NCBI RefSeq assembly: GCF_943733665.1
Contig: NZ_OX030782.1
Span: forward strand, 3,396,501 to 3,460,500
From: Aquimarina sp. Aq107
Lineage (GTDB): Bacteria > Bacteroidota > Bacteroidia > Flavobacteriales > Flavobacteriaceae
Length of the DNA stretch: 64,000 bases
Direction of reading: 5' to 3'
Under the pieces are notes generated by a model that searched no databases, was not told the origin of the DNA, and worked only from the letters and a program-made list of their open reading frames with translations. Position 1 is the stretch's first letter. Every line of letters starts with the position of its first letter. The position numbers and the translations under genes were made by a program. Below are positions 31,415 through 49,829 of this stretch, in pieces.

Positions 31415-32149
31415 ATGCGACAATTTTTTACCATATTATTGTTATCTACTCTCATCCTAAGTTGTAGTTCTCCTAAAAAAGAAGGAAATGTTTCTATAAA
31501 CGGAACAGTAAAAGGACTTAAAAAAGGAACATTATATCTTCAAAAAATTAAAGATACTATCTTAATAAACTTAGATTCTTTAGTTATCGATGGAGATCCT
31601 CAGTTTACATTTCAAACTACTGTTCAAGAACCTGAAATTCATTATTTATTTTTAGATAAACATGATGGAACTCAATTTAATGATCGTATTGATTTTTTTG
31701 CAGAGCCAGGAGTAATTACGATCAACACTTCTTTGAATGGTTTTGAAAAGGAGGCAATTATTGCCGGAGGCAAAAATCAAACTAAATTGATTGAGTACAA
31801 CAAAATGAATAAAAGATTCAAAGAAAGAAATCTAAGAATTATAAAAGAAGATTATGAGGCGAAGAAACAGAATGATGATGAAAAATTAGCTGAAAACGAT
31901 ATCGCTTACAAAAATCTACTTCGACAAAAATATTTGTACACTATCAATTTTGCCATCACCAATAGAAAACTAGAAGTAGCTCCATACATAACTCTTCACG
32001 AAGTTTTTGATGCCAATATTAAATATCTAGATACTGTAGCAAAATCATTATCTCCAAAAGTTAAAAAATCAATATATGGCAAACAACTAACTGATTACTT
32101 AAAAGAGAGAAAAACAAAAGAAGCTGAAAGAGTAGAAAAAGATCAGTAA
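31415..32149 (+). CDS. DUF4369 domain lipoprotein
   Basis: The 244-residue protein has a lipoprotein signal (MRQFFTILLLSTLILSCSS) with the acylated Cys in LSC. The DUF4369 domain follows (about 25-125; NGTVKGLKKGTLYLQKIKD, then DFFAEPGVITIN), a beta domain often found before thioredoxin domains in Bacteroidota. Here the thioredoxin part is absent and the C-terminus is a charged helical tail ending KERKTKEAERVEKDQ. The function is unknown. It precedes the Cys-rich peptide gene on the same strand, separated by 125 bp. Confidence 0.85.
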   Translation: MRQFFTILLLSTLILSCSSPKKEGNVSINGTVKGLKKGTLYLQKIKDTILINLDSLVIDGDPQFTFQTTVQEPEIHYLFLDKHDGTQFNDRIDFFAEPGVITINTSLNGFEKEAIIAGGKNQTKLIEYNKMNKRFKERNLRIIKEDYEAKKQNDDEKLAENDIAYKNLLRQKYLYTINFAITNRKLEVAPYITLHEVFDANIKYLDTVAKSLSPKVKKSIYGKQLTDYLKERKTKEAERVEKDQ

Positions 32150-32274
32150 ATATATTTTTCTAAAAACAATGACATCGTAATTTAACCATAAAATATTGAT
32201 AGAAATACCGCAGGCTACTTAAAACAATTTTCATTAACTTAATTGACTCACAATTAACTCTTTAAACTACAATT

Positions 32275-32520
32275 ATGTTAAAAAAAATTTTAAACTTACA
32301 AGGGGCTCAACAATTAAATAGAAAAGAACAAAAAGGTATTTCTGGAGGAGGACGTCCTGGTGCTGGAGGCGGTGGATGCTGTAATCCTTCATTGTCTTGT
32401 TGTACAACTACTGACTTAGTTAATAATCCAGCATGCGGAGCGACTTACATTCCTGGATGTTACTTTCATCCCGCTAATCCAAATACACCAAGTTATCCTT
32501 ACTATAACTGCTGTATCTAA
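32275..32520 (+). CDS. Cys-rich precursor peptide with double-glycine leader (RiPP/bacteriocin-like)
   Basis: The 81-residue peptide has a leader typical of Bacteroidota natural-product precursors (LKKILNLQGAQQL, then KEQKGISGG). Counting back from Gly25 gives Leu at -12, Glu at -8, Ile at -4 and Gly-Gly at -2/-1, exactly the double-glycine leader consensus cut by C39-peptidase ABC transporters. The predicted core of 56 residues (26-81) starts Gly-rich and holds eight cysteines, at 35, 36, 42, 43, 54, 62, 79 and 80, six of them as CC pairs, plus many Pro, Asn and Tyr. Disulfides or thioether rings are possible. No maturase, transporter or immunity gene lies within the window, so it is an orphan. 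The product is unknown. Confidence 0.8.
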   Translation: MLKKILNLQGAQQLNRKEQKGISGGGRPGAGGGGCCNPSLSCCTTTDLVNNPACGATYIPGCYFHPANPNTPSYPYYNCCI

Positions 32521-32582: not shown

Positions 32583-32594
32583 AGACATTAATAG

Positions 32595-32630
32595 CCCTAA
32601 ACTTCTAAAGAAGATTAGGGTTGTTTATTT
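32595..32630 (+). terminator. Terminator of the precursor peptide gene
   Basis: The stem CCCTAA/TTAGGG continues after one mismatch into CTTC/GAAG with a 4-nt loop and is followed by TTGTTTATTT. Confidence 0.7.
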
Positions 32631-32730: not shown

Positions 32731-32744
32731 CTTACACTATTAAG

Positions 32745-32818
32745 AGCCGATGGAGGGACTCGAACCCACGACCTGCTGATTACAAATCAGCTGCTCTAGC
32801 CAGCTGAGCTACATCGGC
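32745..32818 (-). tRNA. tRNA-Thr (anticodon TGT)
   Basis: The 74-nt gene folds as a cloverleaf. The acceptor pairs GCCGATG with CATCGGC, the D-arm has AGCTCAGCTGG, and the T-arm has GGTTCGAGTCC. The anticodon stem GCTGA/TCAGC encloses the loop TTTGTAA, so the anticodon is TGT, reading ACA threonine codons. The discriminator base is T. CCA is not encoded. A canonical promoter lies directly upstream and a terminator directly downstream, so it is a single-gene unit. Confidence 0.97.
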
Positions 32819-32875: not shown

Positions 32876-33142
32876 TTATAATGAATTTACTTTTTCAGCT
32901 AAAGACTTCGCTGTTTTTTCTAAATCTTCTTTGATAGATTTAAAGTGTTTTGCCGCATTTTCTACATTACGATCACTAACTCTTGCCATAAAAGCATCAA
33001 AAGAGTTGATTGCCTCATCTATAATAACTTCTCCTGCCTTTTTATCTTTATCTGGATTATTCTCTTCCCAGATGTATACTTCTTCTATGATATCCCCTAA
33101 TACGTAGTTAATATCTTTCTTAAGATTTCTTTTATTTGCCAT
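32876..33142 (-). CDS. Small conserved protein of unknown function
   Basis: The 88-residue protein is soluble, charged and predicted all-helical (MANKRNLKKDINYVLGDIIE, later KHFKSIKEDLEKTAKSLAEK). It has no signal peptide or known motif. Similar short proteins occur throughout Flavobacteriia. It lies 59 bp after manA in the same direction and is probably the last gene of the idi-queD-bcp-manA unit. Confidence 0.7.
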   Translation of the reverse strand: MANKRNLKKDINYVLGDIIEEVYIWEENNPDKDKKAGEVIIDEAINSFDAFMARVSDRNVENAAKHFKSIKEDLEKTAKSLAEKVNSL

Positions 33143-33201: not shown

Positions 33202-34179
33202 TTAAATATAGACTTGTAGTAGTTTTGCCCCTTCAGAAATCAAGTTAATTTCTTTTATCGAAGCGGGAACTAAAATTGTCTCTCCAACAGCAATAGTAAC
33301 TTTTTGAGACCCATTTATCAACTGAGCTTTACCTTTTACACACATATATATTACAAAAGAATCTAATTTAGTATGTGACATAGAAATTTCTTTATCCACT
33401 TCTACAAGATTCGTAATAAAGTGTGGACATTGAACTAAATCAGTTATTTGATTATTTTTTGAAGTATACTCTACTTTATAATCAGAATTATTATTAAAAT
33501 CAATTGCCTCTAAAGCATCTTGTTGATGTAATTCTCTGTAGTTACCATCAGAATCTTTACGATCCCAATCATAAACTCGATAAGTAATATCAGATGTTTG
33601 CTGTATTTCTGCTAACAGCACTCCTTTTCCTATTGCGTGTATCAACCCTGAATACACAAAAAATGTATCTCCTTCGGTAACCGACTCATAATGCAAAATA
33701 TCTTTGATGGTCTTATCGGCAACATGTTTTTGATATAATTCAGAATTTACTTTTTGATTAAAGCCAATTATAATATTAGCTCCTTCATCTGCTTGAGTAA
33801 TATACCACATCTCCGTTTTACCTAATGAATTATGCTTCGCTTTAGCGATTTCGTCACCGGGATGCAACTGCACAGAAAGATCCTGTTTAGCATCTATAAA
33901 TTTTATTAGCAAAGGAAATTTTGCTCCAAATCTATCAAAGTTCTTTTGTCCTATCAATTCTTCTTGATAATTAACCAAAAGTTCTTTTAGTGTTTTTCCT
34001 TCAAATTCACCATTAATAACAACCGAACAATCTCCTTCTACATCACTTATCTCCCAACTTTCTCCAACAAAAGAACCCTCAGGTTTCTTTCCTAAAAGAT
34101 TATTTAATTTGGTGCCTCCCCATATTTTTTCCTTTAAAATGGGCTGAAACTTAAGCATGTAAAGTGAATCGTTACTCAT
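33202..34179 (-). CDS. manA: Mannose-6-phosphate isomerase, class I type
   Basis: The 325-residue cupin enzyme interconverts mannose 6-phosphate and fructose 6-phosphate, feeding GDP-mannose and glycan synthesis. Motifs seen are LKEKIWGGTKLNNLLGKK, GESWEISD, the zinc-site segment SVQLHPGDEIAKAKH, GKTEMWYI, and IHAIGKGVLLAEIQQTSDIT with YRVYDWDR. The length fits the short Bacteroidota/Firmicutes form. Its start overlaps the end of the peroxiredoxin gene by 8 bp, so the genes are co-transcribed. Confidence 0.93.
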   Translation of the reverse strand: MSNDSLYMLKFQPILKEKIWGGTKLNNLLGKKPEGSFVGESWEISDVEGDCSVVINGEFEGKTLKELLVNYQEELIGQKNFDRFGAKFPLLIKFIDAKQDLSVQLHPGDEIAKAKHNSLGKTEMWYITQADEGANIIIGFNQKVNSELYQKHVADKTIKDILHYESVTEGDTFFVYSGLIHAIGKGVLLAEIQQTSDITYRVYDWDRKDSDGNYRELHQQDALEAIDFNNNSDYKVEYTSKNNQITDLVQCPHFITNLVEVDKEISMSHTKLDSFVIYMCVKGKAQLINGSQKVTIAVGETILVPASIKEINLISEGAKLLQVYI

Positions 34180-38795: not shown

Positions 38796-41700
38796 TTATC
38801 TGTTAATATATAAGTAACCTGCTTTATATGTATTTACTCCTCTCGCATTTATGTATTCTAAGACATAGTAATAGGTACCTACAGGTAATTTATTATTCTG
38901 CGAAATAGTAACTCTACCATTACTTATTCCTGTAAATAATTCTACACCTGGTTGTTCATAACCATCTTCTTCAAATACCTGAACTCCCCATCTGTTATAG
39001 ATTCTTAATGTATTATCTGGGAAGTTTCTTAAACCTACAATCCTGAAATCATCATTGATTCCATCTCCATTAGGAGTTATACCTGTATAGATTATGATTG
39101 GATCATCAGGATCTGTAAATACTCCTTCGATAATTGTTACCGTTTCATCTTCTGCATCTCCGTCATTATCAAGATCTACATCTGTTGTATCTGTAGGATC
39201 ATCAGAAAGATCAATAACATCATCTCCATTTGGATCCTGACCAGTCACTGTAGCTTGGTTTATAACTTCTCCTAAAAGAACATCCTCTGCCGTTAATACA
39301 TAAGTAGCAGTAAATGTGGTCATATCTATCTCGCCAACTGCTAAATCTATTGGACCTCCAGTAACAACAATACCCTCCAATGGATCAGTAAGAACAATAT
39401 TAGTAACATCAACATTACCTGTGTTCTCTACCGTAAAGGTGTACTGAATCTCATCGCCTACATTTGGAAGATCATCACCATTAACATCAACATAAAAACC
39501 TGTCTTAGTTAAAGCTAAATTAGGTAGCTGTTCTATATCCGTAATCGTCTCATCATTGGTAGGATCACCATCTCCATTATCATCAACAGTCTCATCTCCA
39601 TTATCAGATATATCAATAACATCATTGTCATCAGGATCATCTCCAATTACAGTTGCACTATTGATCACTTCACCATTATTAATATCGGTCTGTGTAATCA
39701 CATACTCTACTGTAGCAATACCTTCTTCACCTGGAGCTAATATTGATGGACTAACAGCAAGATTTGTACTTCCTGTAAGAATATCATCTATAAAGATATT
39801 ATCAATAGTTACATCTCCTGTATTAGTAACTGTAAAAGTGTATGTAATAACATCTCCTACATTAGAACCGCTAGCTACACCTGTTTTAACTAATGTTAAT
39901 TCTGGATCTTGACTTAAATCAGTCACCGTGGTATCATTAGTAGGATCTGAATCTGTACTACCATCTCCATCTGGTGTCTCAACAGTCTCATCACCAGCAT
40001 CAGATACATCACTAACATCATCTGGACCTCCTAATGGACTATCTCCTGTTGCTGTAGCACTGTTCTCTATATAACCTGCATCAATATCAGCCTGAGTAAT
40101 TGTTTGATTCGCCGTTACTGTTACACTAACTCCTGGTGCTAAACTAACTATTGGACTACCTACAATACTTCCTGCATCTGCATTATCATCAGTGATCTCA
40201 ATATTTGTCAAAGTAACATTACCTGTATTGGTAACCACAATATCATATTCGATTACATCATTCAATACAGATCCAGCAACTCTAACTGTCTTGATAACAC
40301 TTAGACTTGGTGATGGTGTAAAGGTAGTCACCGTTGTATCATTAGTAGGATCTGAATCTGTACTACCATCTCCATCTGGTGTCTCAACAGTCTCATCACC
40401 GGCATCAGATACATCACTAACATCATCTGGACCTCCTAATGGACTATCTCCTGTTGCTGTAGCACTGTTCTCTATATAACCTGCATCAATATCAGCCTGA
40501 GTAATTGTTTGATTCGCCGTTACTGTTACACTAACTCCTGGTGCTAGACTAACTATTGGGCTACCTACAATACTTCCTGCATCTGCATTATCATCAGTGA
40601 TCTCAATATCTGTCAAAGTAACATTACCTGTATTGGTAACCACAATATCATATTCGATTACATCATTTAATACAGATCCTGCAACTCTAACTGTCTTGAT
40701 AACACTTAGATTTGGTGATGGTGTAAAGGTAGTCACCGTTGTATCATTAGTAGGATCTGAATCTGTACTACCATCTCCATCTGGTGTCTCAACAGTCTCA
40801 TCACCAGCATCGGATACATCACTAACATCATCTGGACCTCCTAATGGACTATCTCCTGTTGCTGTAGCACTGTTCTCTATATAACCTGCATCAATATCAG
40901 CCTGAGTAATTGTTTGATTCGCCGTTACTGTTACACTAACTCCTGGTGCTAAACTAACTATTGGACTACCTACAATACTTCCTGCATCTGCATTATCATC
41001 AGTGATCTCAATATTTGTCAAAGTAACATTACCTGTATTGGTAACCACAATATCATATTCGATTACATCATTCAATACAGATCCAGCAACTCTAACTGTC
41101 TTGATAACACTTAGACTTGGTGATGGTGTAAAGGTAGTCACCGTTGTATCATTAGTAGGATCTGAATCTGTACTACCATCTCCATCTGGTGTCTCAACAG
41201 TCTCATCACCGGCATCAGATACATCACTAACATCATCTGGACCTCCTAATGGACTATCTCCTGTTGCTGTAGCACTGTTCTCTATATAACCTGCATCAAT
41301 ATCAGCCTGAGTAATTGTTTGATTCGCCGTTACTGTTACACTAACTCCTGGTGCTAGACTAACTATTGGGCTACCTACAATACTTCCTGCATCTGCATTA
41401 TCATCAGTGATCTCAATATCTGTCAAAGTAACATTACCTGTATTGGTAACCACAATATCATATTCGATTACATCATTTAATACAGATCCTGCAACTCTAA
41501 CTGTCTTGATAACACTTAGATTTGGTGATGGTGTAAAGGTAGTCACCGTTGTATCATTAGTAGGATCTGAATCTGTACTACCATCTCCATCTGGTGTCTC
41601 AACAGTCTCATCACCAGCATCGGATACATCACTAACATCATCTGGACCTCCTAATGGACTATCTCCTGTTGCTGTAGCACTGTTCTCTATATAACCTGCA

Positions 41701-44700
41701 TCAATATCAGCCTGAGTAATTGTTTGATTCGCCGTTACTGTTACACTAACTCCTGGTGCTAAACTAACTATTGGGCTACCTACAATACTTCCTGCATCTG
41801 CATTATCATCAGTGATCTCAATATTTGTAAGCGTCACATTACCTGTATTGGTAACCACAATATCGTACTCAATTACATCATTTAATACAGATCCTGTAAC
41901 TCTAACTGTCTTGATAACACTTAGATTTGGAACGTCAGGCGTAGCACTCGTCTCATCATCCTCAACAGGTGCATCTGTATCTGGAGTAGCATCTGGACTA
42001 CTGTCTAGATCAAAATTATCACTCGCCGTAATCTCTGCAAAGTTTGTATAGTTTCCAGTAGCTGTAACTACTGCAGTATAGGTCAATACTAAACTCATTC
42101 CTGAGTTAATCGATAACCCACTCCAACTAATCAATCCACCACTCTCACTTCCACTATCACTAATACTACTAATAGTCGTATATCCATCTGGAACCGTATC
42201 TCCTACGCCAACACCCGTAGCATTGTTAGGACCTGCATTGGTTACTGTAACACTAAAAGTAACTGTATCTCCAACACTAATCACTGTATCAGTATCTGCA
42301 TCGGTAGTTAATACTACACTCTTAGCAATACTTAAATCACTTACTGGAGCAACTCCTGGGTCTGCATCATCTTGGTCATCCTCCGCCAATACATCATTGT
42401 TCGGTGTACTGTCTGGATCAAAATTATCACTAGCCGTTACTTCAGCTACATTCACATAAGTACCCGTAGCATTTACCGTAGCTATTATCGTTAAGGTAGC
42501 ATTACCACTCGTATTTATAGTACCAACATCCCAAACTCCGGTACCTACTGTATAGGTACCTTGACTTACCGTTGGGGTACCTACAATCGTATAACCAGTT
42601 GGAACCTGATCGGTTACTTCAACTCCAGTTGCATTTGCAGAACCGCCATTGCTTACGGTTACTGTAAAGGTAACGGTATCTCCTGCAGTAGCAGTCGTAC
42701 TACCATCTGCATCCGTTGTTAACACAACACCTTTGGTAAGCGATACATCACTTACTGGAGCAACTCCTGGGTCTGCATCATCTTGGTCATCCTCCGCCAA
42801 TACATCATTATTCGGTGTACTGTCTGGATCAAAATTATCACTAGCCGTTACTTCAGCTACATTCACATAAGTACCCGTAGCATTTACCGTAGCTATTATC
42901 GTTAAGGTAGCATTACCACTCGTATTTATCGTGCCAACATCCCAAACTCCGGTACCTACTGTATAAGTACCTTGACTTACCGTTGGGGTACCTACAATCG
43001 TATAACCAGTTGGAACCTGATCGGTTACTTCAACTCCAGTTGCATTTGCAGAACCGCCATTGCTTACGGTTACTGTAAAGGTAACGGTATCTCCTGCAGT
43101 AGCAGTCGTACTACCATCTACATCCGTTGTTAACACAACACCTTTGGTAAGCGATACATCACTTACTGGAGCAACTCCTGGGTCTGCATCATCTTGGTCA
43201 TCCTCCGCCAATACATCATTATTCGGTGTACTGTCTGGATCAAAATTATCACTAGCCGTTACTTCAGCTACATTCACATAAGTACCCGTAGCATTTACCG
43301 TAGCTATTATCGTTAAGGTAGCATTACCACTCGTATTTATAGTACCAACATCCCAAACTCCGGTACCTACTGTATAGGTACCTTGACTTACCGTTGGGGT
43401 ACCTACAATCGTATAACCAGTTGGAACCTGATCGGTTACTTCAACTCCAGTTGCATTTGCAGAACCGCCATTGCTTACGGTTACTGTAAAGGTAACGGTA
43501 TCTCCTGCAGTAGCAGTCGTACTACCATCTGCATCCGTTGTTAAAACAACACCTTTGGTAAGCGATACATCACTTACTGGAGCAACTCCTGGGTCTGCAT
43601 CATCTTGGTCATCCTCCGCCAATACATCATTATTCGGTGTACTGTCTGGATCAAAATTATCACTAGCCGTTACTTCAGCTACATTCACATAAGTACCCGT
43701 AGCATTTACCGTAGCTATTATCGTTAAGGTAGCATTACCACTCGTATTTATCGTGCCAACATCCCAAACTCCGGTACCTACTGTATAGGTACCTTGACTT
43801 ACCGTTGGGGTACCTACAATCGTATAACCAGTTGGAACCTGATCGGTTACTTCAACTCCAGTTGCATTTGCAGAACCGCCATTGCTTACGGTTACTGTAA
43901 AGGTAACGGTATCTCCTGCAGTAGCAGTCGTACTACCATCTGCATCCGTTGTTAAAACAACACCTTTGGTAAGCGATACATCACTTACTGGAGCAACTCC
44001 TGGGTCTGCATCATCTTGGTCATCCTCCGCCAATACATCATTATTCGGTGTACTGTCTGGATCAAAATTATCACTAGCCGTTACTTCAGCTACATTCACA
44101 TAAGTACCCGTAGCATTTACCGTAGCTATTATCGTTAAGGTAGCATTACCACTCGTATTTATCGTGCCAACATCCCAAACTCCGGTACCTACTGTATAGG
44201 TACCTTGACTTACCGTTGGGGTACCTACAATCGTATAACCAGTTGGAACCTGATCGGTTACTTCAACTCCAGTTGCATTTGCAGAACCGCCATTGCTTAC
44301 GGTTACTGTAAAGGTAACGGTATCTCCTGCAGTAGCAGTCGTACTACCATCTGCATCCGTTGTTAACACAACACCTTTGGTAAGCGATACATCACTTACT
44401 GGAGCAACTCCTGGGTCTGCATCATCTTGGTCATCCTCCGCCAATACATCATTATTCGGTGTACTGTCTGGATCAAAATTATCACTAGCCGTTACTTCAG
44501 CTACATTCACATAAGTACCCGTAGCATTTACCGTAGCTATTATCGTTAAGGTAGCATTACCACTCGTATTTATAGTACCAACATCCCAAACTCCGGTACC
44601 TACTGTATAGGTACCTTGACTTACCGTTGGGGTACCTACAATCGTATAACCAGTTGGAACCTGATCGGTTACTTCAACTCCAGTTGCATTTGCAGAACCG

Positions 44701-47700
44701 CCATTGCTTACGGTTACTGTAAAGGTAACGGTATCTCCTGCAGTAGCAGTTGTACTACCATCTGCATCCGTTGTTAACACAACACCTTTGGTAAGCGATA
44801 CATCACTTACTGGAGCAACTCCTGGGTCTGCATCATCTTGGTCATCCTCCGCCAATACATCATTATTCGGTGTACTGTCTGGATCAAAATTATCACTAGC
44901 CGTTACTTCAGCTACATTCACATAAGTACCCGTAGCATTTACCGTAGCTATTATCGTTAAGGTAGCATTACCACTCGTATTTATAGTACCAACATCCCAA
45001 ACTCCGGTACCTACTGTATAGGTACCTTGACTTACCGTTGGGGTACCTACAATCGTATAACCAGTTGGAACCTGATCGGTTACTTCAACTCCAGTTGCAT
45101 TTGCAGAACCGCCATTGCTTACGGTTACTGTAAAGGTAACGGTATCTCCTGCAGTAGCAGTTGTACTACCATCTGCATCCGTTGTTAACACAACACCTTT
45201 GGTAAGCGATACATCACTTACTAAACCAACTCCTGGGTCTGCATCATCTTGGTCATCCTCCGCCAATACATCATTATTCGGTGTACTGTCTGGATCAAAA
45301 TTATCACTAGCCGTTACTTCAGCTACATTCACATAAGTACCCGTAGCATTTACCGTAGCTATTATCGTTAAGGTAGCATTACCACTCGTATTTATAGTAC
45401 CAACATCCCAAACTCCGGTACCTACTGTATAGGTACCTTGACTTACCGTTGGGGTACCTACAATCGTATAACCAGTTGGAACCTGATCGGTTACTTCAAC
45501 TCCAGTTGCATTTGCAGAACCGCCATTGCTTACGGTTACTGTAAAGGTAACGGTATCTCCTGCAGTAGCAGTCGTACTACCATCTGCATCCGTTGTTAAA
45601 ACAACACCTTTGGTAAGCGATACATCACTTACTGGAGCAACTCCTGGGTCTGCATCATCTTGGTCATCCTCCGCCAATACATCATTATTCGGTGTACTGT
45701 CTGGATCAAAATTATCACTAGCCGTTACTTCAGCTACATTCACATAAGTACCCGTAGCATTTACCGTAGCTATTATCGTTAAGGTAGCATTACCACTCGT
45801 ATTTATAGTACCAACATCCCAAACTCCGGTACCTACTGTATAGGTACCTTGACTTACCGTTGGGGTACCTACAATCGTATAACCAGTTGGAACCTGATCG
45901 GTTACTTCAACTCCAGTTGCATTTGCAGAACCGCCATTGCTTACGGTTACTGTAAAGGTAACGGTATCTCCTGCAGTAGCAGTTGTACTACCATCTGCAT
46001 CCGTTGTTAACACAACACCTTTGGTAAGCGATACATCACTTACTGGAGCAACTCCTGGGTCTGCATCATCTTGGTCATCCTCCGCCAATACATCATTATT
46101 CGGTGTACTGTCTGGATCAAAATTATCACTAGCCGTTACTTCAGCTACATTCACATAAGTACCCGTAGCATTTACCGTAGCTATTATCGTTAAGGTAGCA
46201 TTACCACTCGTATTTATAGTACCAACATCCCAAACTCCGGTACCTACTGTATAAGTACCTTGACTTACCGTTGGGGTACCTACAATCGTATAACCAGTTG
46301 GAACCTGATCGGTTACTTCAACTCCAGTTGCATTTGCAGAACCGCCATTGCTTACGGTTACTGTAAAGGTAACGGTATCTCCTGCAGTAGCAGTCGTACT
46401 ACCATCTGCATCCGTTGTTAAAACAACACCTTTGGTAAGCGATACATCACTTACTGGAGCAACTCCTGGGTCTGCATCATCTTGGTCATCCTCCGCCAAT
46501 ACATCATTATTCGGTGTACTGTCTGGATCAAAATTATCACTAGCCGTTACTTCAGCTACATTCACATAAGTACCCGTAGCATTTACCGTAGCTATTATCG
46601 TTAAGGTAGCATTACCACTCGTATTTATAGTACCAACATCCCAAACTCCGGTACCTACTGTATAGGTACCTTGACTTACCGTTGGGGTACCTACAATCGT
46701 ATAACCAGTTGGAACCTGATCGGTTACTTCAACTCCAGTTGCATTTGCAGAACCGCCATTGCTTACGGTTACTGTAAAGGTAACGGTATCTCCTGCAGTA
46801 GCAGTCGTACTACCATCTGCATCCGTTGTTAACACAACACCTTTGGTAAGCGATACATCACTTACTAAACCAACTCCTGGGTCTGCATCATCTTGGTCAT
46901 CCTCCGCCAATACATCATTATTCGGTGTACTGTCTGGATCAAAATTATCACTAGCCGTTACTTCAGCTACATTCACATAAGTACCCGTAGCATTTACCGT
47001 AGCTATTATCGTTAAGGTAGCATTACCACTCGTATTTATCGTGCCAACATCCCAAACTCCGGTACCTACTGTATAGGTACCTTGACTTACCGTTGGGGTA
47101 CCTACAATCGTATAACCAGTTGGAACCTGATCGGTTACTTCAACTCCAGTTGCATTTGCAGAACCGCCATTGCTTACGGTTACTGTAAAGGTAACGGTAT
47201 CTCCTGCAGTAGCAGTCGTACTACCATCTGCATCCGTTGTTAAAACAACACCTTTGGTAAGCGATACATCACTTACTGGAGCAACTCCTGGGTCTGCATC
47301 ATCTTGGTCATCCTCCGCCAATACATCATTATTCGGTGTACTGTCTGGATCAAAATTATCACTAGCCGTTACTTCAGCTACATTCACATAAGTACCCGTA
47401 GCATTTACCGTAGCTATTATCGTTAAGGTAGCATTACCACTCGTATTTATCGTGCCAACATCCCAAACTCCGGTACCTACTGTATAAGTACCTTGACTTA
47501 CCGTTGGGGTACCTACAATCGTATAACCAGTTGGAACCTGATCGGTTACTTCAACTCCAGTTGCATTTGCAGAACCGCCATTGCTTACGGTTACTGTAAA
47601 GGTAACGGTATCTCCTGCAGTAGCAGTTGTACTACCATCTGCATCCGTTGTTAACACAACACCTTTGGTAAGCGATACATCACTTACTGGAGCAACTCCT

Positions 47701-49829
47701 GGGTCTGCATCATCTTGGTCATCCTCCGCCAATACATCATTATTCGGTGTACTGTCTGGATCAAAATTATCACTAGCCGTTACTTCAGCTACATTCACAT
47801 AAGTACCCGTAGCATTTACCGTAGCTATTATCGTTAAGGTAGCATTACCACTCGTATTTATAGTACCAACATCCCAAACTCCGGTACCTACTGTATAGGT
47901 ACCTTGACTTACCGTTGGGGTACCTACAATCGTATAACCAGTTGGAACCTGATCGGTTACTTCAACTCCAGTTGCATTTGCAGAACCGCCATTGCTTACG
48001 GTTACTGTAAAGGTAACGGTATCTCCTGCAGTAGCAGTCGTACTACCATCTGCATCCGTTGTTAACACAACACCTTTGGTAAGCGATACATCACTTACTG
48101 GAGCAACTCCTGGGTCTGCATCATCTTGGTCATCCTCCGCCAATACATCATTATTCGGTGTACTGTCTGGATCAAAATTATCACTAGCCGTTACTTCAGC
48201 TACATTCACATAAGTACCCGTAGCATTTACCGTAGCTATTATCGTTAAGGTAGCATTACCACTCGTATTTATAGTACCAACATCCCAAACTCCGGTACCT
48301 ACTGTATAGGTACCTTGACTTACCGTTGGGGTACCTACAATCGTATAACCAGTTGGAACCTGATCGGTTACTTCAACTCCAGTTGCATTTGCAGAACCGC
48401 CATTGCTTACGGTTACTGTAAAGGTAACGGTATCTCCTGCAGTAGCAGTTGTACTACCATCTGCATCCGTTGTTAACACAACACCTTTGGTAAGCGATAC
48501 ATCACTTACTGGAGCAACTCCTGGGTCTGCATCATCTTGGTCATCCTCCGCCAATACATCATTATTCGGTGTACTGTCTGGATCAAAATTATCACTAGCC
48601 GTTACTTCAGCTACATTCACATAAGTACCCGTAGCATTTACCGTAGCTATTATCGTTAAGGTAGCATTACCACTCGTATTTATAGTACCAACATCCCAAA
48701 CTCCGGTACCTACTGTATAGGTACCTTGACTTACCGTTGGGGTACCTACAATCGTATAACCAGTTGGAACCTGATCGGTTACTTCAACTCCAGTTGCATT
48801 TGCAGAACCGCCATTGCTTACGGTTACTGTAAAGGTAACGGTATCTCCTGCAGTAGCAGTTGTACTACCATCTGCATCCGTTGTTAACACAACACCTTTG
48901 GTAAGCGATACATCACTTACTGGAGCAACTCCTGGATCTGCATCATCTTGGTCATCCTCCGCCAATACATCATTATTCGGTGTACTGTCTGGATCAAAAT
49001 TATCACTAGCCGTTACTTCAGCTACATTCACATAAGTACCCGTAGCATTTACCGTAGCTATTATCGTTAAGGTAGCATTACCACTCGTATTTATAGTACC
49101 AACATCCCAAACTCCGGTACCTACTGTATAGGTACCTTGACTTACCGTTGGGGTACCTACAATCGTATAACCAGTTGGAACCTGATCGGTTACTTCAACT
49201 CCAGTTGCATTTGCAGAACCGCCATTGCTTACGGTTACTGTAAAGGTAACGGTATCTCCTGCAGTAGCAGTCGTACTACCATCTGCATCCGTTGTTAACA
49301 CAACACCTTTGGTAAGCGATACATCACTTACTGGAGCAACTCCTGGGTCTGCATCATCTTGGTCATCCTCCGCCAATACATCATTATTCGGTGTACTGTC
49401 TGGATCAAAATTATCACTAGCCGTTACTTCAGCTACATTCACATAAGTACCCGTAGCATTTACCGTAGCTATTATCGTTAAGGTAGCATTACCACTCGTA
49501 TTTATAGTACCAACATCCCAAACTCCGGTACCTACTGTATAGGTACCTTGACTTACCGTTGGGGTACCTACAATCGTATAACCAGTTGGAACCTGATCGG
49601 TTACTTCAACTCCAGTTGCATTTGCAGAACCGCCATTGCTTACGGTTACTGTAAAGGTAACGGTATCTCCTGCAGTAGCAGTCGTACTACCATCTGCATC
49701 CGTTGTTAACACAACACCTTTGGTAAGCGATACATCACTTACTGAAACCAACTCCTGGGTCTGCATCATCTTGGTCATCCTCCGCCAATACATCATTATT
49801 CGGTGTACTGTCTGGATCAAAATTATCAC
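38796..49829 (-). CDS. Giant DUF11-repeat adhesin, C-terminal part, type B T9SS cargo
   Basis: This 3,677-codon frame is the C-terminal part of the locus continuing from 49735-57375. Its first ~33 residues, before DVSLTKGVV, are out-of-frame translation, so the ATG at 49829 is not a true start. In order it has 18 near-identical 137-residue DUF11 repeats, one diverged DUF11 repeat (DLSIAKSVVLTTDADTDT), five 135-residue repeats (LSVIKTVRVAG..., with DDNADAGS and SDAGDETVETPDGDGS), and two further DUF11-like domains (LTLVKTGVASG, LALTKTGFYVD). It ends with a gliding motility-associated type B CTD of about 95 residues (ITPNGDGINDDF; LRIYNRWGVQVFEE; LPVGTYYYVLEY; YKAGYLYINR). DUF11 domains are Ig-like stalk modules of surface proteins. 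The protein should be exported by T9SS with the help of the adjacent PorP/SprF. Confidence 0.9.
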   Translation of the reverse strand: MIILIQTVHRIMMYWRRMTKMMQTQELVSVSDVSLTKGVVLTTDADGSTTATAGDTVTFTVTVSNGGSANATGVEVTDQVPTGYTIVGTPTVSQGTYTVGTGVWDVGTINTSGNATLTIIATVNATGTYVNVAEVTASDNFDPDSTPNNDVLAEDDQDDADPGVAPVSDVSLTKGVVLTTDADGSTTATAGDTVTFTVTVSNGGSANATGVEVTDQVPTGYTIVGTPTVSQGTYTVGTGVWDVGTINTSGNATLTIIATVNATGTYVNVAEVTASDNFDPDSTPNNDVLAEDDQDDADPGVAPVSDVSLTKGVVLTTDADGSTTATAGDTVTFTVTVSNGGSANATGVEVTDQVPTGYTIVGTPTVSQGTYTVGTGVWDVGTINTSGNATLTIIATVNATGTYVNVAEVTASDNFDPDSTPNNDVLAEDDQDDADPGVAPVSDVSLTKGVVLTTDADGSTTATAGDTVTFTVTVSNGGSANATGVEVTDQVPTGYTIVGTPTVSQGTYTVGTGVWDVGTINTSGNATLTIIATVNATGTYVNVAEVTASDNFDPDSTPNNDVLAEDDQDDADPGVAPVSDVSLTKGVVLTTDADGSTTATAGDTVTFTVTVSNGGSANATGVEVTDQVPTGYTIVGTPTVSQGTYTVGTGVWDVGTINTSGNATLTIIATVNATGTYVNVAEVTASDNFDPDSTPNNDVLAEDDQDDADPGVAPVSDVSLTKGVVLTTDADGSTTATAGDTVTFTVTVSNGGSANATGVEVTDQVPTGYTIVGTPTVSQGTYTVGTGVWDVGTINTSGNATLTIIATVNATGTYVNVAEVTASDNFDPDSTPNNDVLAEDDQDDADPGVAPVSDVSLTKGVVLTTDADGSTTATAGDTVTFTVTVSNGGSANATGVEVTDQVPTGYTIVGTPTVSQGTYTVGTGVWDVGTINTSGNATLTIIATVNATGTYVNVAEVTASDNFDPDSTPNNDVLAEDDQDDADPGVGLVSDVSLTKGVVLTTDADGSTTATAGDTVTFTVTVSNGGSANATGVEVTDQVPTGYTIVGTPTVSQGTYTVGTGVWDVGTINTSGNATLTIIATVNATGTYVNVAEVTASDNFDPDSTPNNDVLAEDDQDDADPGVAPVSDVSLTKGVVLTTDADGSTTATAGDTVTFTVTVSNGGSANATGVEVTDQVPTGYTIVGTPTVSQGTYTVGTGVWDVGTINTSGNATLTIIATVNATGTYVNVAEVTASDNFDPDSTPNNDVLAEDDQDDADPGVAPVSDVSLTKGVVLTTDADGSTTATAGDTVTFTVTVSNGGSANATGVEVTDQVPTGYTIVGTPTVSQGTYTVGTGVWDVGTINTSGNATLTIIATVNATGTYVNVAEVTASDNFDPDSTPNNDVLAEDDQDDADPGVAPVSDVSLTKGVVLTTDADGSTTATAGDTVTFTVTVSNGGSANATGVEVTDQVPTGYTIVGTPTVSQGTYTVGTGVWDVGTINTSGNATLTIIATVNATGTYVNVAEVTASDNFDPDSTPNNDVLAEDDQDDADPGVGLVSDVSLTKGVVLTTDADGSTTATAGDTVTFTVTVSNGGSANATGVEVTDQVPTGYTIVGTPTVSQGTYTVGTGVWDVGTINTSGNATLTIIATVNATGTYVNVAEVTASDNFDPDSTPNNDVLAEDDQDDADPGVAPVSDVSLTKGVVLTTDADGSTTATAGDTVTFTVTVSNGGSANATGVEVTDQVPTGYTIVGTPTVSQGTYTVGTGVWDVGTINTSGNATLTIIATVNATGTYVNVAEVTASDNFDPDSTPNNDVLAEDDQDDADPGVAPVSDVSLTKGVVLTTDADGSTTATAGDTVTFTVTVSNGGSANATGVEVTDQVPTGYTIVGTPTVSQGTYTVGTGVWDVGTINTSGNATLTIIATVNATGTYVNVAEVTASDNFDPDSTPNNDVLAEDDQDDADPGVAPVSDVSLTKGVVLTTDADGSTTATAGDTVTFTVTVSNGGSANATGVEVTDQVPTGYTIVGTPTVSQGTYTVGTGVWDVGTINTSGNATLTIIATVNATGTYVNVAEVTASDNFDPDSTPNNDVLAEDDQDDADPGVAPVSDVSLTKGVVLTTDADGSTTATAGDTVTFTVTVSNGGSANATGVEVTDQVPTGYTIVGTPTVSQGTYTVGTGVWDVGTINTSGNATLTIIATVNATGTYVNVAEVTASDNFDPDSTPNNDVLAEDDQDDADPGVAPVSDVSLTKGVVLTTDVDGSTTATAGDTVTFTVTVSNGGSANATGVEVTDQVPTGYTIVGTPTVSQGTYTVGTGVWDVGTINTSGNATLTIIATVNATGTYVNVAEVTASDNFDPDSTPNNDVLAEDDQDDADPGVAPVSDVSLTKGVVLTTDADGSTTATAGDTVTFTVTVSNGGSANATGVEVTDQVPTGYTIVGTPTVSQGTYTVGTGVWDVGTINTSGNATLTIIATVNATGTYVNVAEVTASDNFDPDSTPNNDVLAEDDQDDADPGVAPVSDLSIAKSVVLTTDADTDTVISVGDTVTFSVTVTNAGPNNATGVGVGDTVPDGYTTISSISDSGSESGGLISWSGLSINSGMSLVLTYTAVVTATGNYTNFAEITASDNFDLDSSPDATPDTDAPVEDDETSATPDVPNLSVIKTVRVTGSVLNDVIEYDIVVTNTGNVTLTNIEITDDNADAGSIVGSPIVSLAPGVSVTVTANQTITQADIDAGYIENSATATGDSPLGGPDDVSDVSDAGDETVETPDGDGSTDSDPTNDTTVTTFTPSPNLSVIKTVRVAGSVLNDVIEYDIVVTNTGNVTLTDIEITDDNADAGSIVGSPIVSLAPGVSVTVTANQTITQADIDAGYIENSATATGDSPLGGPDDVSDVSDAGDETVETPDGDGSTDSDPTNDTTVTTFTPSPSLSVIKTVRVAGSVLNDVIEYDIVVTNTGNVTLTNIEITDDNADAGSIVGSPIVSLAPGVSVTVTANQTITQADIDAGYIENSATATGDSPLGGPDDVSDVSDAGDETVETPDGDGSTDSDPTNDTTVTTFTPSPNLSVIKTVRVAGSVLNDVIEYDIVVTNTGNVTLTDIEITDDNADAGSIVGSPIVSLAPGVSVTVTANQTITQADIDAGYIENSATATGDSPLGGPDDVSDVSDAGDETVETPDGDGSTDSDPTNDTTVTTFTPSPSLSVIKTVRVAGSVLNDVIEYDIVVTNTGNVTLTNIEITDDNADAGSIVGSPIVSLAPGVSVTVTANQTITQADIDAGYIENSATATGDSPLGGPDDVSDVSDAGDETVETPDGDGSTDSDPTNDTTVTDLSQDPELTLVKTGVASGSNVGDVITYTFTVTNTGDVTIDNIFIDDILTGSTNLAVSPSILAPGEEGIATVEYVITQTDINNGEVINSATVIGDDPDDNDVIDISDNGDETVDDNGDGDPTNDETITDIEQLPNLALTKTGFYVDVNGDDLPNVGDEIQYTFTVENTGNVDVTNIVLTDPLEGIVVTGGPIDLAVGEIDMTTFTATYVLTAEDVLLGEVINQATVTGQDPNGDDVIDLSDDPTDTTDVDLDNDGDAEDETVTIIEGVFTDPDDPIIIYTGITPNGDGINDDFRIVGLRNFPDNTLRIYNRWGVQVFEEDGYEQPGVELFTGISNGRVTISQNNKLPVGTYYYVLEYINARGVNTYKAGYLYINR
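39906..41930 (-). repeat. Five tandem 405-bp repeats (135 residues each)
   Basis: Five units run from P(N/S)LSVIKTVRV to the next. Units alternate between two subtypes (PNL... and PSL..., NVTLTN and NVTLTD), so the array also repeats with a higher-order period of 810 bp: 40192-41001 and 41002-41811 look the same at base level. The first unit in reading direction has RVTG instead of RVAG and more base changes, and the last one is joined to a different domain. Confidence 0.9.

What the first reader, a model, noticed from the sequence alone, without database searches (positions are those of the whole stretch)
32275..32520. Orphan Cys-rich precursor peptide with an exact double-glycine leader
Seen: Leu(-12), Glu(-8), Ile(-4), Gly-Gly(-2/-1) relative to residue 25, and a 56-residue core with eight Cys, mostly as CC pairs. 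Known: such leaders direct cleavage and export by C39-peptidase ABC transporters, and Bacteroidota encode many natural-product precursors of this kind. No maturation or transport gene lies nearby, so it must use enzymes encoded elsewhere or be matured by disulfide formation alone. The core does not match a peptide family I recognise.
Basis: partly seen in the sequence, partly recalled or inferred. Interest (0 to 1): 0.75.

Follow-up and report, generated by a model that had tools for sequence, protein, structure and literature searches.

The report
Secreted cysteine-rich peptide, matured in trans
The window holds a real, conserved gene for a small cysteine-rich peptide that a marine bacterium probably exports and staples together with disulfide bonds using a shared machine encoded far away, one of about thirty such peptides in this genome.

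Summary
ORF 32275-32520 encodes an 81-aa precursor with a 25-residue double-glycine leader and an eight-Cys core. It is a real gene: 16 genomes of the genus (Aquimarina) carry it, between the same two neighbours in all 15 others, with all eight Cys invariant and dN/dS 0.04-0.18 in the nine of 12 chosen pairs that gave a value. The nearest C39 or VKOR gene is about 0.8 Mb away, but the genome holds one complete C39-peptidase ABC exporter and two unusual fusions: a C39-like domain without catalytic Cys, a VKOR and a thioredoxin. These go with this leader type. Of 50 other loci found by leader similarity, 44 carry the fusion and 40 the exporter; all 58 of 140 genomes with the leader have a VKOR (a correlation resting on about two evolutionary changes). 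Core Cys counts are even in 79 of 85 clusters, a disulfide signature. Best reading: a secreted, disulfide-stapled miniprotein, cleaved and exported in trans by the shared exporter and oxidised by the fusions. Its target is unknown; the closest characterised system is bacteroidetocin. Bonus: 16 of this genome's small precursors (not this one) follow a covarying hairpin RNA, possibly a pseudoknot, without Rfam match.

The parts
32275..32520 (+). Precursor gene, 81 aa, 8 Cys
   Evidence: ORF; 16 genomes, 8 Cys invariant; same neighbours 15/15; dN/dS 0.04-0.18 in nine of 12 chosen pairs
32275..32349 (+). Double-glycine leader, residues 1-25
   Evidence: Leader profile hit 47.9 bits, E 1.2e-11 (this leader is one of the 51 rows of the profile); Gly24 invariant, Gln19 and Gly25 nearly so over 51 leaders
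32350..32517 (+). Predicted mature core, 56 residues, 3 CC pairs plus 2 single Cys
   Evidence: Alignment of 16; cleavage site inferred, not shown
32234..32274 (+). 5' stretch directly before the ATG, alike in the nearest orthologues and in L019 (function unknown)
   Evidence: Eye comparison of 8 upstream sequences printed
32590..32625 (+). Terminator-like hairpin after the gene, T-rich downstream
   Evidence: Fold -16.9 kcal/mol, z -4.58; several orthologues have other inverted repeats there (by eye)
32744..32818 (-). tRNA-Thr (TGT), downstream neighbour
   Evidence: ARAGORN, Rfam tRNA
31415..32149 (+). Upstream neighbour, 244-aa putative lipoprotein; marks the conserved locus, no role in maturation proposed
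   Evidence: tblastn in 15 of 15 other loci; lipoprotein reading by eye
32876..33142 (-). Downstream neighbour, 88 aa; marks the conserved locus, not a dedicated immunity gene
   Evidence: tblastn in 15 of 15 other loci; present in 72 of 140 genomes, 56 of them without this peptide

Best explanation
The gene makes a secreted, disulfide-stapled miniprotein. The 25-residue double-glycine leader is recognised and cut after Gly25 by the C39 domain of the genome's only complete C39-ABC exporter (G000 1152531-1154735, with a HlyD partner), which passes the 56-residue core out of the cytoplasm. Its eight Cys are paired into four disulfides by one or both C39-like-VKOR-thioredoxin membrane fusions (G000 4240318-4241913 and 1111226-1112827). 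One shared machine thus serves about thirty precursors spread over the chromosome. Shown by computation: gene, orthology, selection, presence and domains of the machine, association of this leader type with it, even Cys counts. Inferred: that this precursor uses it, the cleavage, the disulfides, and the C39-like domain as a leader-docking module. The mature target is unknown. Because the gene is vertically kept under purifying selection, with no other ORF of 50 aa or more between its conserved neighbours in 7 of 15 orthologous loci, I lean to a conserved secreted role (inhibitor, signal or broad antagonist) over a fast-evolving bacteriocin.
For: Exporter: PF03412 2.1e-32, ABC domains, intact DCG motif. 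Fusions: VKOR 5.9e-14 and 4.2e-13, thioredoxin, weak C39; the only two VKORs of the genome at E<=1; four VKOR Cys, thioredoxin CxxC and Thr-Pro invariant in 24 of 24 aligned. Machine and leader travel together: of 50 loci found by similarity to this peptide but lacking its core, 44 carry a fusion over at least 450 aligned residues and 40 an exporter hit, 36 of them full length at 65.8-68.9 % identity to this genome's. Of 47 fetched fusion genes (of 101 VKOR matches), 23 have a Cys-rich leader peptide within 1 kb, 13 an exporter within 4 kb, 33 either, while the 15 orthologous neighbourhoods of this gene (208.8 kb) give no leader-HMM hit besides it. All 58 leader-positive genomes of 140 have VKOR. 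Even Cys: 79 of 85 clusters; with 3-8 Cys 72 of 78, against 186 of 414 and 249 of 672 control ORFs. The peptide beside one of this genome's fusions shares the leader and a CxPALxCC segment (hhalign 97.8 % over 40 columns).
Against: Nothing links this very gene to the machine by position. The genome-level co-occurrence needs only two changes on a gyrB tree of 26 genomes, so it is not 58 independent cases. 14 of 47 fusions have neither a detected Cys-rich peptide nor an exporter in range, and 6 of the 50 leader-found loci lack a full fusion. Core similarity to the fusion-linked peptide is short (11 columns, 78.6 %). Four of the 15 orthologous loci have beside this gene a second small precursor with a different, lanthipeptide-like KGG leader (L212, L214-L216). 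The peptide model is poor (mean pLDDT 50), so no disulfide pattern can be read. Six of 85 clusters have odd Cys counts.
Confidence: 0.7

Rival explanations
1. Exported and cut by the C39-ABC transporter, but disulfides form spontaneously or by general thioredoxin-fold oxidases; the VKOR fusions serve other peptides.
For: Peptides beside the fusions have other cores, and this gene lies far from both fusions. 14 of 47 fusions show no peptide or exporter in range.
Against: Same leader type at fusion loci; both VKORs of the genome are of this fusion kind; leader-positive genomes are a subset of VKOR-positive ones.
Confidence: 0.18
2. A lanthipeptide or otherwise enzyme-modified RiPP whose Cys react with Ser/Thr or cofactors rather than with each other.
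For: Two LanC-like genes exist in the genome, one about 52 kb from this gene, between Cys-rich leader peptides and behind a KGG-type precursor. In 4 of 15 orthologous loci a small precursor with a lanthipeptide-like leader sits beside the gene.
Against: Lanthionine needs no even Cys number, yet counts are even in 79 of 85 clusters; only two Thr and no Ser are invariant in the core; in 7 of 15 orthologous loci nothing of 50 aa or more lies between the conserved neighbours but this gene. Dehydratases and radical SAM enzymes were not searched for.
Confidence: 0.07
3. A narrow-spectrum bacteriocin of the bacteroidetocin sort, with immunity encoded elsewhere. This concerns the target and is compatible with the maturation route above.
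For: Bacteroidetocins: Bacteroidetes, GG leader, four Cys, C39-ABC, thiol oxidoreductase, killing reported (PMC6671954, abstract start and passages).
Against: The only constant neighbours are general genes; vertical inheritance and purifying selection over 16 genomes. A systematic search for immunity genes was not made.
Confidence: 0.3
4. A relic or spurious ORF.
For: None found beyond short length and lack of a database family.
Against: dN/dS 0.04-0.18 in nine of 12 chosen pairs, invariant Cys, conserved locus.
Confidence: 0.02

Closest known systems
Bacteroidetocins (Bacteroidales peptide toxins, PMC6671954)
   Same: GG leader, four Cys thought to be disulfide-bonded, C39-ABC exporter, a thiol oxidoreductase and a five-TM protein in the locus (passages)
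   Different: Leader 15 aa against 25; four Cys against eight; precursor and machine in one locus there; here the precursor stands apart, and VKOR, thioredoxin and a C39-like domain are one protein. Sequence comparison with bacteroidetocins was not run.
Flavobacterium-type clusters: fusion + leader peptides + C39-ABC + HlyD (found here, L061-L104 and others)
   Same: Same leader, homologous exporter (65.8-68.9 % where full length) and fusion (26-32 %, and 65 % in L080, an Aquimarina)
   Different: Precursors sit inside the cluster; cores unrelated. The paper searches gave no listing that describes it; only titles and abstract starts were seen, apart from PMC6671954.
NCBIfam NF047798 leader_Chryseo / TIGR04149 / TIGR01847 leader models
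   Same: Short Bacteroidota or general double-glycine leader models
   Different: No hit for this peptide at E<=10. Of 10 relatives scanned, two touch NF047798, one TIGR04149 and one the pinensin leader NF038180, all below cut-off; one (L070) passes TIGR01847 and TIGR03949.
VKOR-thioredoxin proteins of known structure (4nv6, 3kp9)
   Same: VKOR and thioredoxin in one chain (names and matches); catalytic Cys conserved in the fusions
   Different: Extra N-terminal C39-like domain without the catalytic Cys.

Membership tests
Double-glycine (C39-processed) precursor | Leader ending GG with hydrophobic -4 and -12 and Glu -8 (recalled rule) | tested here: met
   Sequence; 51-leader alignment; leader profile E 1.2e-11
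Double-glycine (C39-processed) precursor | C39-ABC exporter in the genome | tested here: met
Double-glycine (C39-processed) precursor | Cleavage after GG | not testable with these tools
   Needs mass spectrometry
Bacteroidetocin | 15-aa leader and four Cys (the two founding members; the paper says at least two Cys for the rest) | tested here: not met
   25-aa leader, 8 Cys against the paper's passages
Bacteroidetocin | Locus with TM protein, thiol oxidoreductase and C39-ABC | tested here: not met
   No C39 or VKOR in the window; they lie elsewhere in the genome
Bacteroidetocin | Sequence similarity of the mature peptide | not tested
   Bacteroidetocin sequences were not fetched
NCBIfam leader_Chryseo NF047798 | Score over 23.5 bits | tested here: not met
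   No hit for this peptide
Class I lanthipeptide | Cyclase (LanC) beside the precursor | tested here: not met
   No LanC in the window; two elsewhere in the genome
Class I lanthipeptide | Dehydratase (LanB) | not tested
   LanB was not searched
C39 peptidase (for the fusion's N-terminal domain) | Fold | tested here: met
   hhalign to exporter C39 domains 95.3 %, E 2.4e-8; Pfam C39 18.5 and 21.1 bits against a cut-off of 22, 21.4 and 25.1 in the genome search; Foldseek rank 42 PCAT1 over a long loose alignment
C39 peptidase (for the fusion's N-terminal domain) | Catalytic Cys | tested here: not met
   No conserved Cys; at most 3 of 47 with Cys in any column of that domain

The most novel reading that the evidence does not exclude
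The fusion is a leader-guided oxidative foldase: its dead C39-like domain docks the double-glycine leader and hands unrelated Cys-rich cores to the attached VKOR-thioredoxin relay, so one kind of enzyme staples about thirty scattered precursors, this one included, in trans. That would make disulfide formation a leader-directed modification like those of other RiPPs.
Probability: 0.35. Interest if true: 0.82.

Novelty: new variant of a known kind. Interest (0 to 1): 0.6.

Why it matters
It turns an apparently orphan precursor into a testable case of maturation in trans and points to a large pool of probably disulfide-rich secreted peptides in Flavobacteriales (up to 51 leader hits in one relative), with a named candidate exporter and oxidase. 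If the leader guides oxidation, a compact enzyme for folding many different Cys-rich peptides would be at hand.

Tried and rejected
Family look-ups of the peptide gave nothing, and the only structure-sequence match was a collagen chain at E 0.014, taken as glycine composition. The peptide's own model is too weak to search. The fold search of the fusion is dominated by its thioredoxin domain; PCAT1 first appears at rank 42. I first took the genome co-occurrence as very strong and lowered it after the gyrB tree. I rejected a pure C39 co-occurrence: 18 of 140 genomes have C39 hits but no VKOR and no leader at E<=0.01, so the exporter family alone does not predict these peptides. A first Cys-parity test against 50 % was too generous, since counts from 2 to 9 are even in 64 and 66 % of control ORFs; one search repeats it for 3-8 Cys. 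The RNA model found no convincing element before the window gene: best window hit 22.2 bits, E 0.063, inside an unrelated ORF. The 88-aa neighbour was considered as an immunity gene and rejected: it is in 72 of 140 genomes, 56 of them without this peptide. One search read minus-strand loci in the wrong orientation; one search corrected it. One search crashed and was redone.

Rows dropped: leader HMM from 97 of 101 peptides, 4 lacked a recognisable GG. RNA alignment from 40 of 55 distinct instances, chosen by hand: 12 near copies and 3 with ill-fitting stems left out, which flatters the pairing percentage. The gyrB tree used 26 of the 30 genomes asked for. A3 holds 24 of 47 fusions. dN/dS pairs were 12 chosen of 120.

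Full report
Observation. The window lies at G000:C1:3396501-3460500 of a 5.50-Mb genome; named matches of 98 and 95 % are Aquimarina latercula and A. amphilecti, so the genus is Aquimarina.

Is it a gene. Of 140 genomes (own included), 57 have some match at E<=0.1; 16, all of this genus, match at E<=3.4e-16 and keep all eight Cys. Eighteen further columns are invariant. In all 15 others the 31415 gene lies on one side and the 88-aa 32876 gene on the other; the gene at 33202 is found in 5 of the 15, and some loci have extra DNA between the neighbours. So it is one vertically inherited locus. Of 12 pairs chosen, nine give dN/dS of 0.04-0.18; three give no value (no synonymous change, or saturation), and several others are near saturation; over the 119 pairs with pS above 0.05, mean pS is 0.58 and mean pN 0.17. 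A stable hairpin follows the gene, and the 40 bases before the ATG are alike in near orthologues (by eye).

Relatives by leader. A scan of the species-genome collection returned 54 loci: 4 Aquimarina orthologues, and 50 that share the leader but not the core, mostly Flavobacterium, with Dokdonia, Salegentibacter, Kordia, two further Aquimarina and one Saprospiraceae MAG among the rest. In this genome a 51-leader profile finds 25 places at E<=0.01 and 38 at E<=10, the weakest probably chance. Of the 30 fetched, 25 have cores with 4 or 6 Cys. RNA hits add a few more precursors, hence 'about thirty'.

The machine. The genome has one complete C39-ABC exporter, with HlyD, another 67-aa GG peptide and a DUF6734 gene beside it. 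Its other C39 hits at E<=0.001 are a 162-aa soluble protein and two fusions. Each fusion runs C39-like, VKOR, thioredoxin; these are the only VKORs at E<=1. In 24 aligned fusions the six redox Cys and Thr-Pro are invariant, while the C39-like part has an invariant His33 and Asn53 but no conserved Cys. Profile comparison ties it to the exporters' C39 domains, aligning only beyond the segment with the exporters' catalytic Cys. AlphaFold gives 82.8 mean pLDDT, and sequence profiles find solved VKOR and DsbA-like proteins.

Association. Nine of 45 fetched foreign VKOR regions have fusion, exporter and HlyD as neighbours on one strand: L171-L173, L175, L178, L199, L205-L207, the exporter 65-97 % identical to this genome's. 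Of 47 fusion genes examined (101 VKOR matches), 23 have a Cys-rich leader peptide within 1 kb and 33 have that or an exporter. From the other side, of the 50 leader-found loci 44 have a fusion over at least 450 residues and 40 an exporter hit, 4 of these partial; L070, L071, L105, L106 and L108 have neither and L060 a fragment. Over 140 genomes 58 have the leader (E<=0.01), 61 VKOR (E<=0.001), and the 58 lie within the 61 (Fisher 3e-36). That P value ignores kinship: on a gyrB tree of 26 genomes the VKOR pattern needs two changes.

Disulfide signature. 258 leader peptides in the fetched DNA form 86 core clusters; 85 have Cys, 79 an even number. For 3-8 Cys, 72 of 78 are even, against 45 % and 37 % in two sets of control ORFs. 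Odd counts would be no bar to thioethers or metal ligands, so this speaks for Cys-Cys pairing. It does not fix which Cys pair.

Peptides beside the fusions. Ten genomes, this one included, have within about 1 kb of the fusion a peptide with the segment CxPxxSCCYHNG. It shares the leader and a short CxPALxCC stretch with the window peptide; the core match alone is weak.

Surroundings of the orthologues. In 7 of 15 loci (L209-L211, L217, L218, L221, L223) this gene is the only ORF of 50 aa or more between the conserved neighbours; in 4 (L212, L214-L216) a second small precursor lies opposite, with a KKKNLKSLKLNKKSISKL...KGG leader that looks lanthipeptide-like (by eye). The 88-aa neighbour is in 72 of 140 genomes, 56 of them without the peptide, so it is no dedicated immunity gene.

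Novelty. Double-glycine Cys-containing peptides with a C39 exporter and an oxidoreductase are known in this phylum (bacteroidetocins, PMC6671954, passages). What differs is the three-domain fusion, the trans use inferred here, the number of precursors and this core family. Paper searches joining vitamin K epoxide reductase or VKOR with C39, bacteriocins or Bacteroidetes gave 0, 0, 0 and 1 unrelated listing; most subscription papers are not in that library.

Noticed on the way. Upstream of many of these precursors, but not of this one, lies GACA, a stem, UGUC in the loop, and the stem's other side, with the ATG 17-26 bases past the 39-position model (in L293 by an inner Met). A simple pattern occurs 77 times in 2.20 Mb of fetched DNA, 60 of them before a loosely defined double-glycine small ORF; that DNA was fetched around such genes. 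In the whole genome the covariance model lists 20 hits at E<=10; 16, including all 15 below E 0.005, precede small precursors, 14 with a plain leader, one KGG lanthipeptide-like (L293) and one ending NGQSGG (L294). Ten of the model's rows come from this genome, so part of this is by construction. All 7 stem pairs show changes on both sides, 67 cells against 21.7 in shuffles (40 chosen rows). GACA and UGUC never vary there, because the search pattern required them, so the pseudoknot pairing is untested; one genome hit outside the rows, L303, reads GGCA with UGUC, a compatible G-U change. Rfam has no relevant match in 16 loci at E<=1.

Noticed in passing
G000 loci L289-L304; e.g. L111:11525-11562, L117:9837-9875; Flavobacterium L061, L069: A short covarying hairpin with constant GACA before it and UGUC in its loop (possible H-type pseudoknot) shortly before the ATG of double-glycine Cys-rich precursors; 16 of 20 genome hits precede a small precursor, 7 of 7 stem pairs covary on 40 chosen rows, no relevant Rfam match in 16 loci. 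Possibly a new cis-regulatory RNA class. The window gene lacks it.
   Followed up: partly
L112, L117, L125 (G000 near 1.11, 3.59 and 3.37 Mb); L060, L180, L195, L227: TPR-CHAT (caspase-like) protein genes with a sigma-factor-like gene (by eye) and a further gene beside double-glycine peptides: 3 of 20 own-genome regions, 3 of 45 fusion regions, 1 of 49 leader loci, 0 of 15 orphan loci (CHAT shown by Pfam for L112 only).
   Followed up: partly
L125:10358-11947 (G000 about 3375357-3376946): A KGG-type, lanthipeptide-like precursor preceded by the same RNA element and followed by a LanC-like gene, between two Cys-rich leader peptides.
   Followed up: no
L212, L214, L215, L216 (between the conserved neighbours of the orphan's orthologues): A second small precursor of 50-52 aa with a K-rich leader ending KGG, on the opposite strand.
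   Followed up: no
window 38796-49829 (-): A 3677-aa ORF made largely of near-identical repeats (SDVSLTKGVVLTTDADGSTTATAGDTV...), ending in what looks like a type IX secretion sorting domain (by eye and recalled).
   Followed up: no
L208:8408-9212: Four tandem, similar small GG-leader ORFs without Cys in the core (VDPLTNEPVVDLDISQEAL...) beside a VKOR fusion.
   Followed up: no
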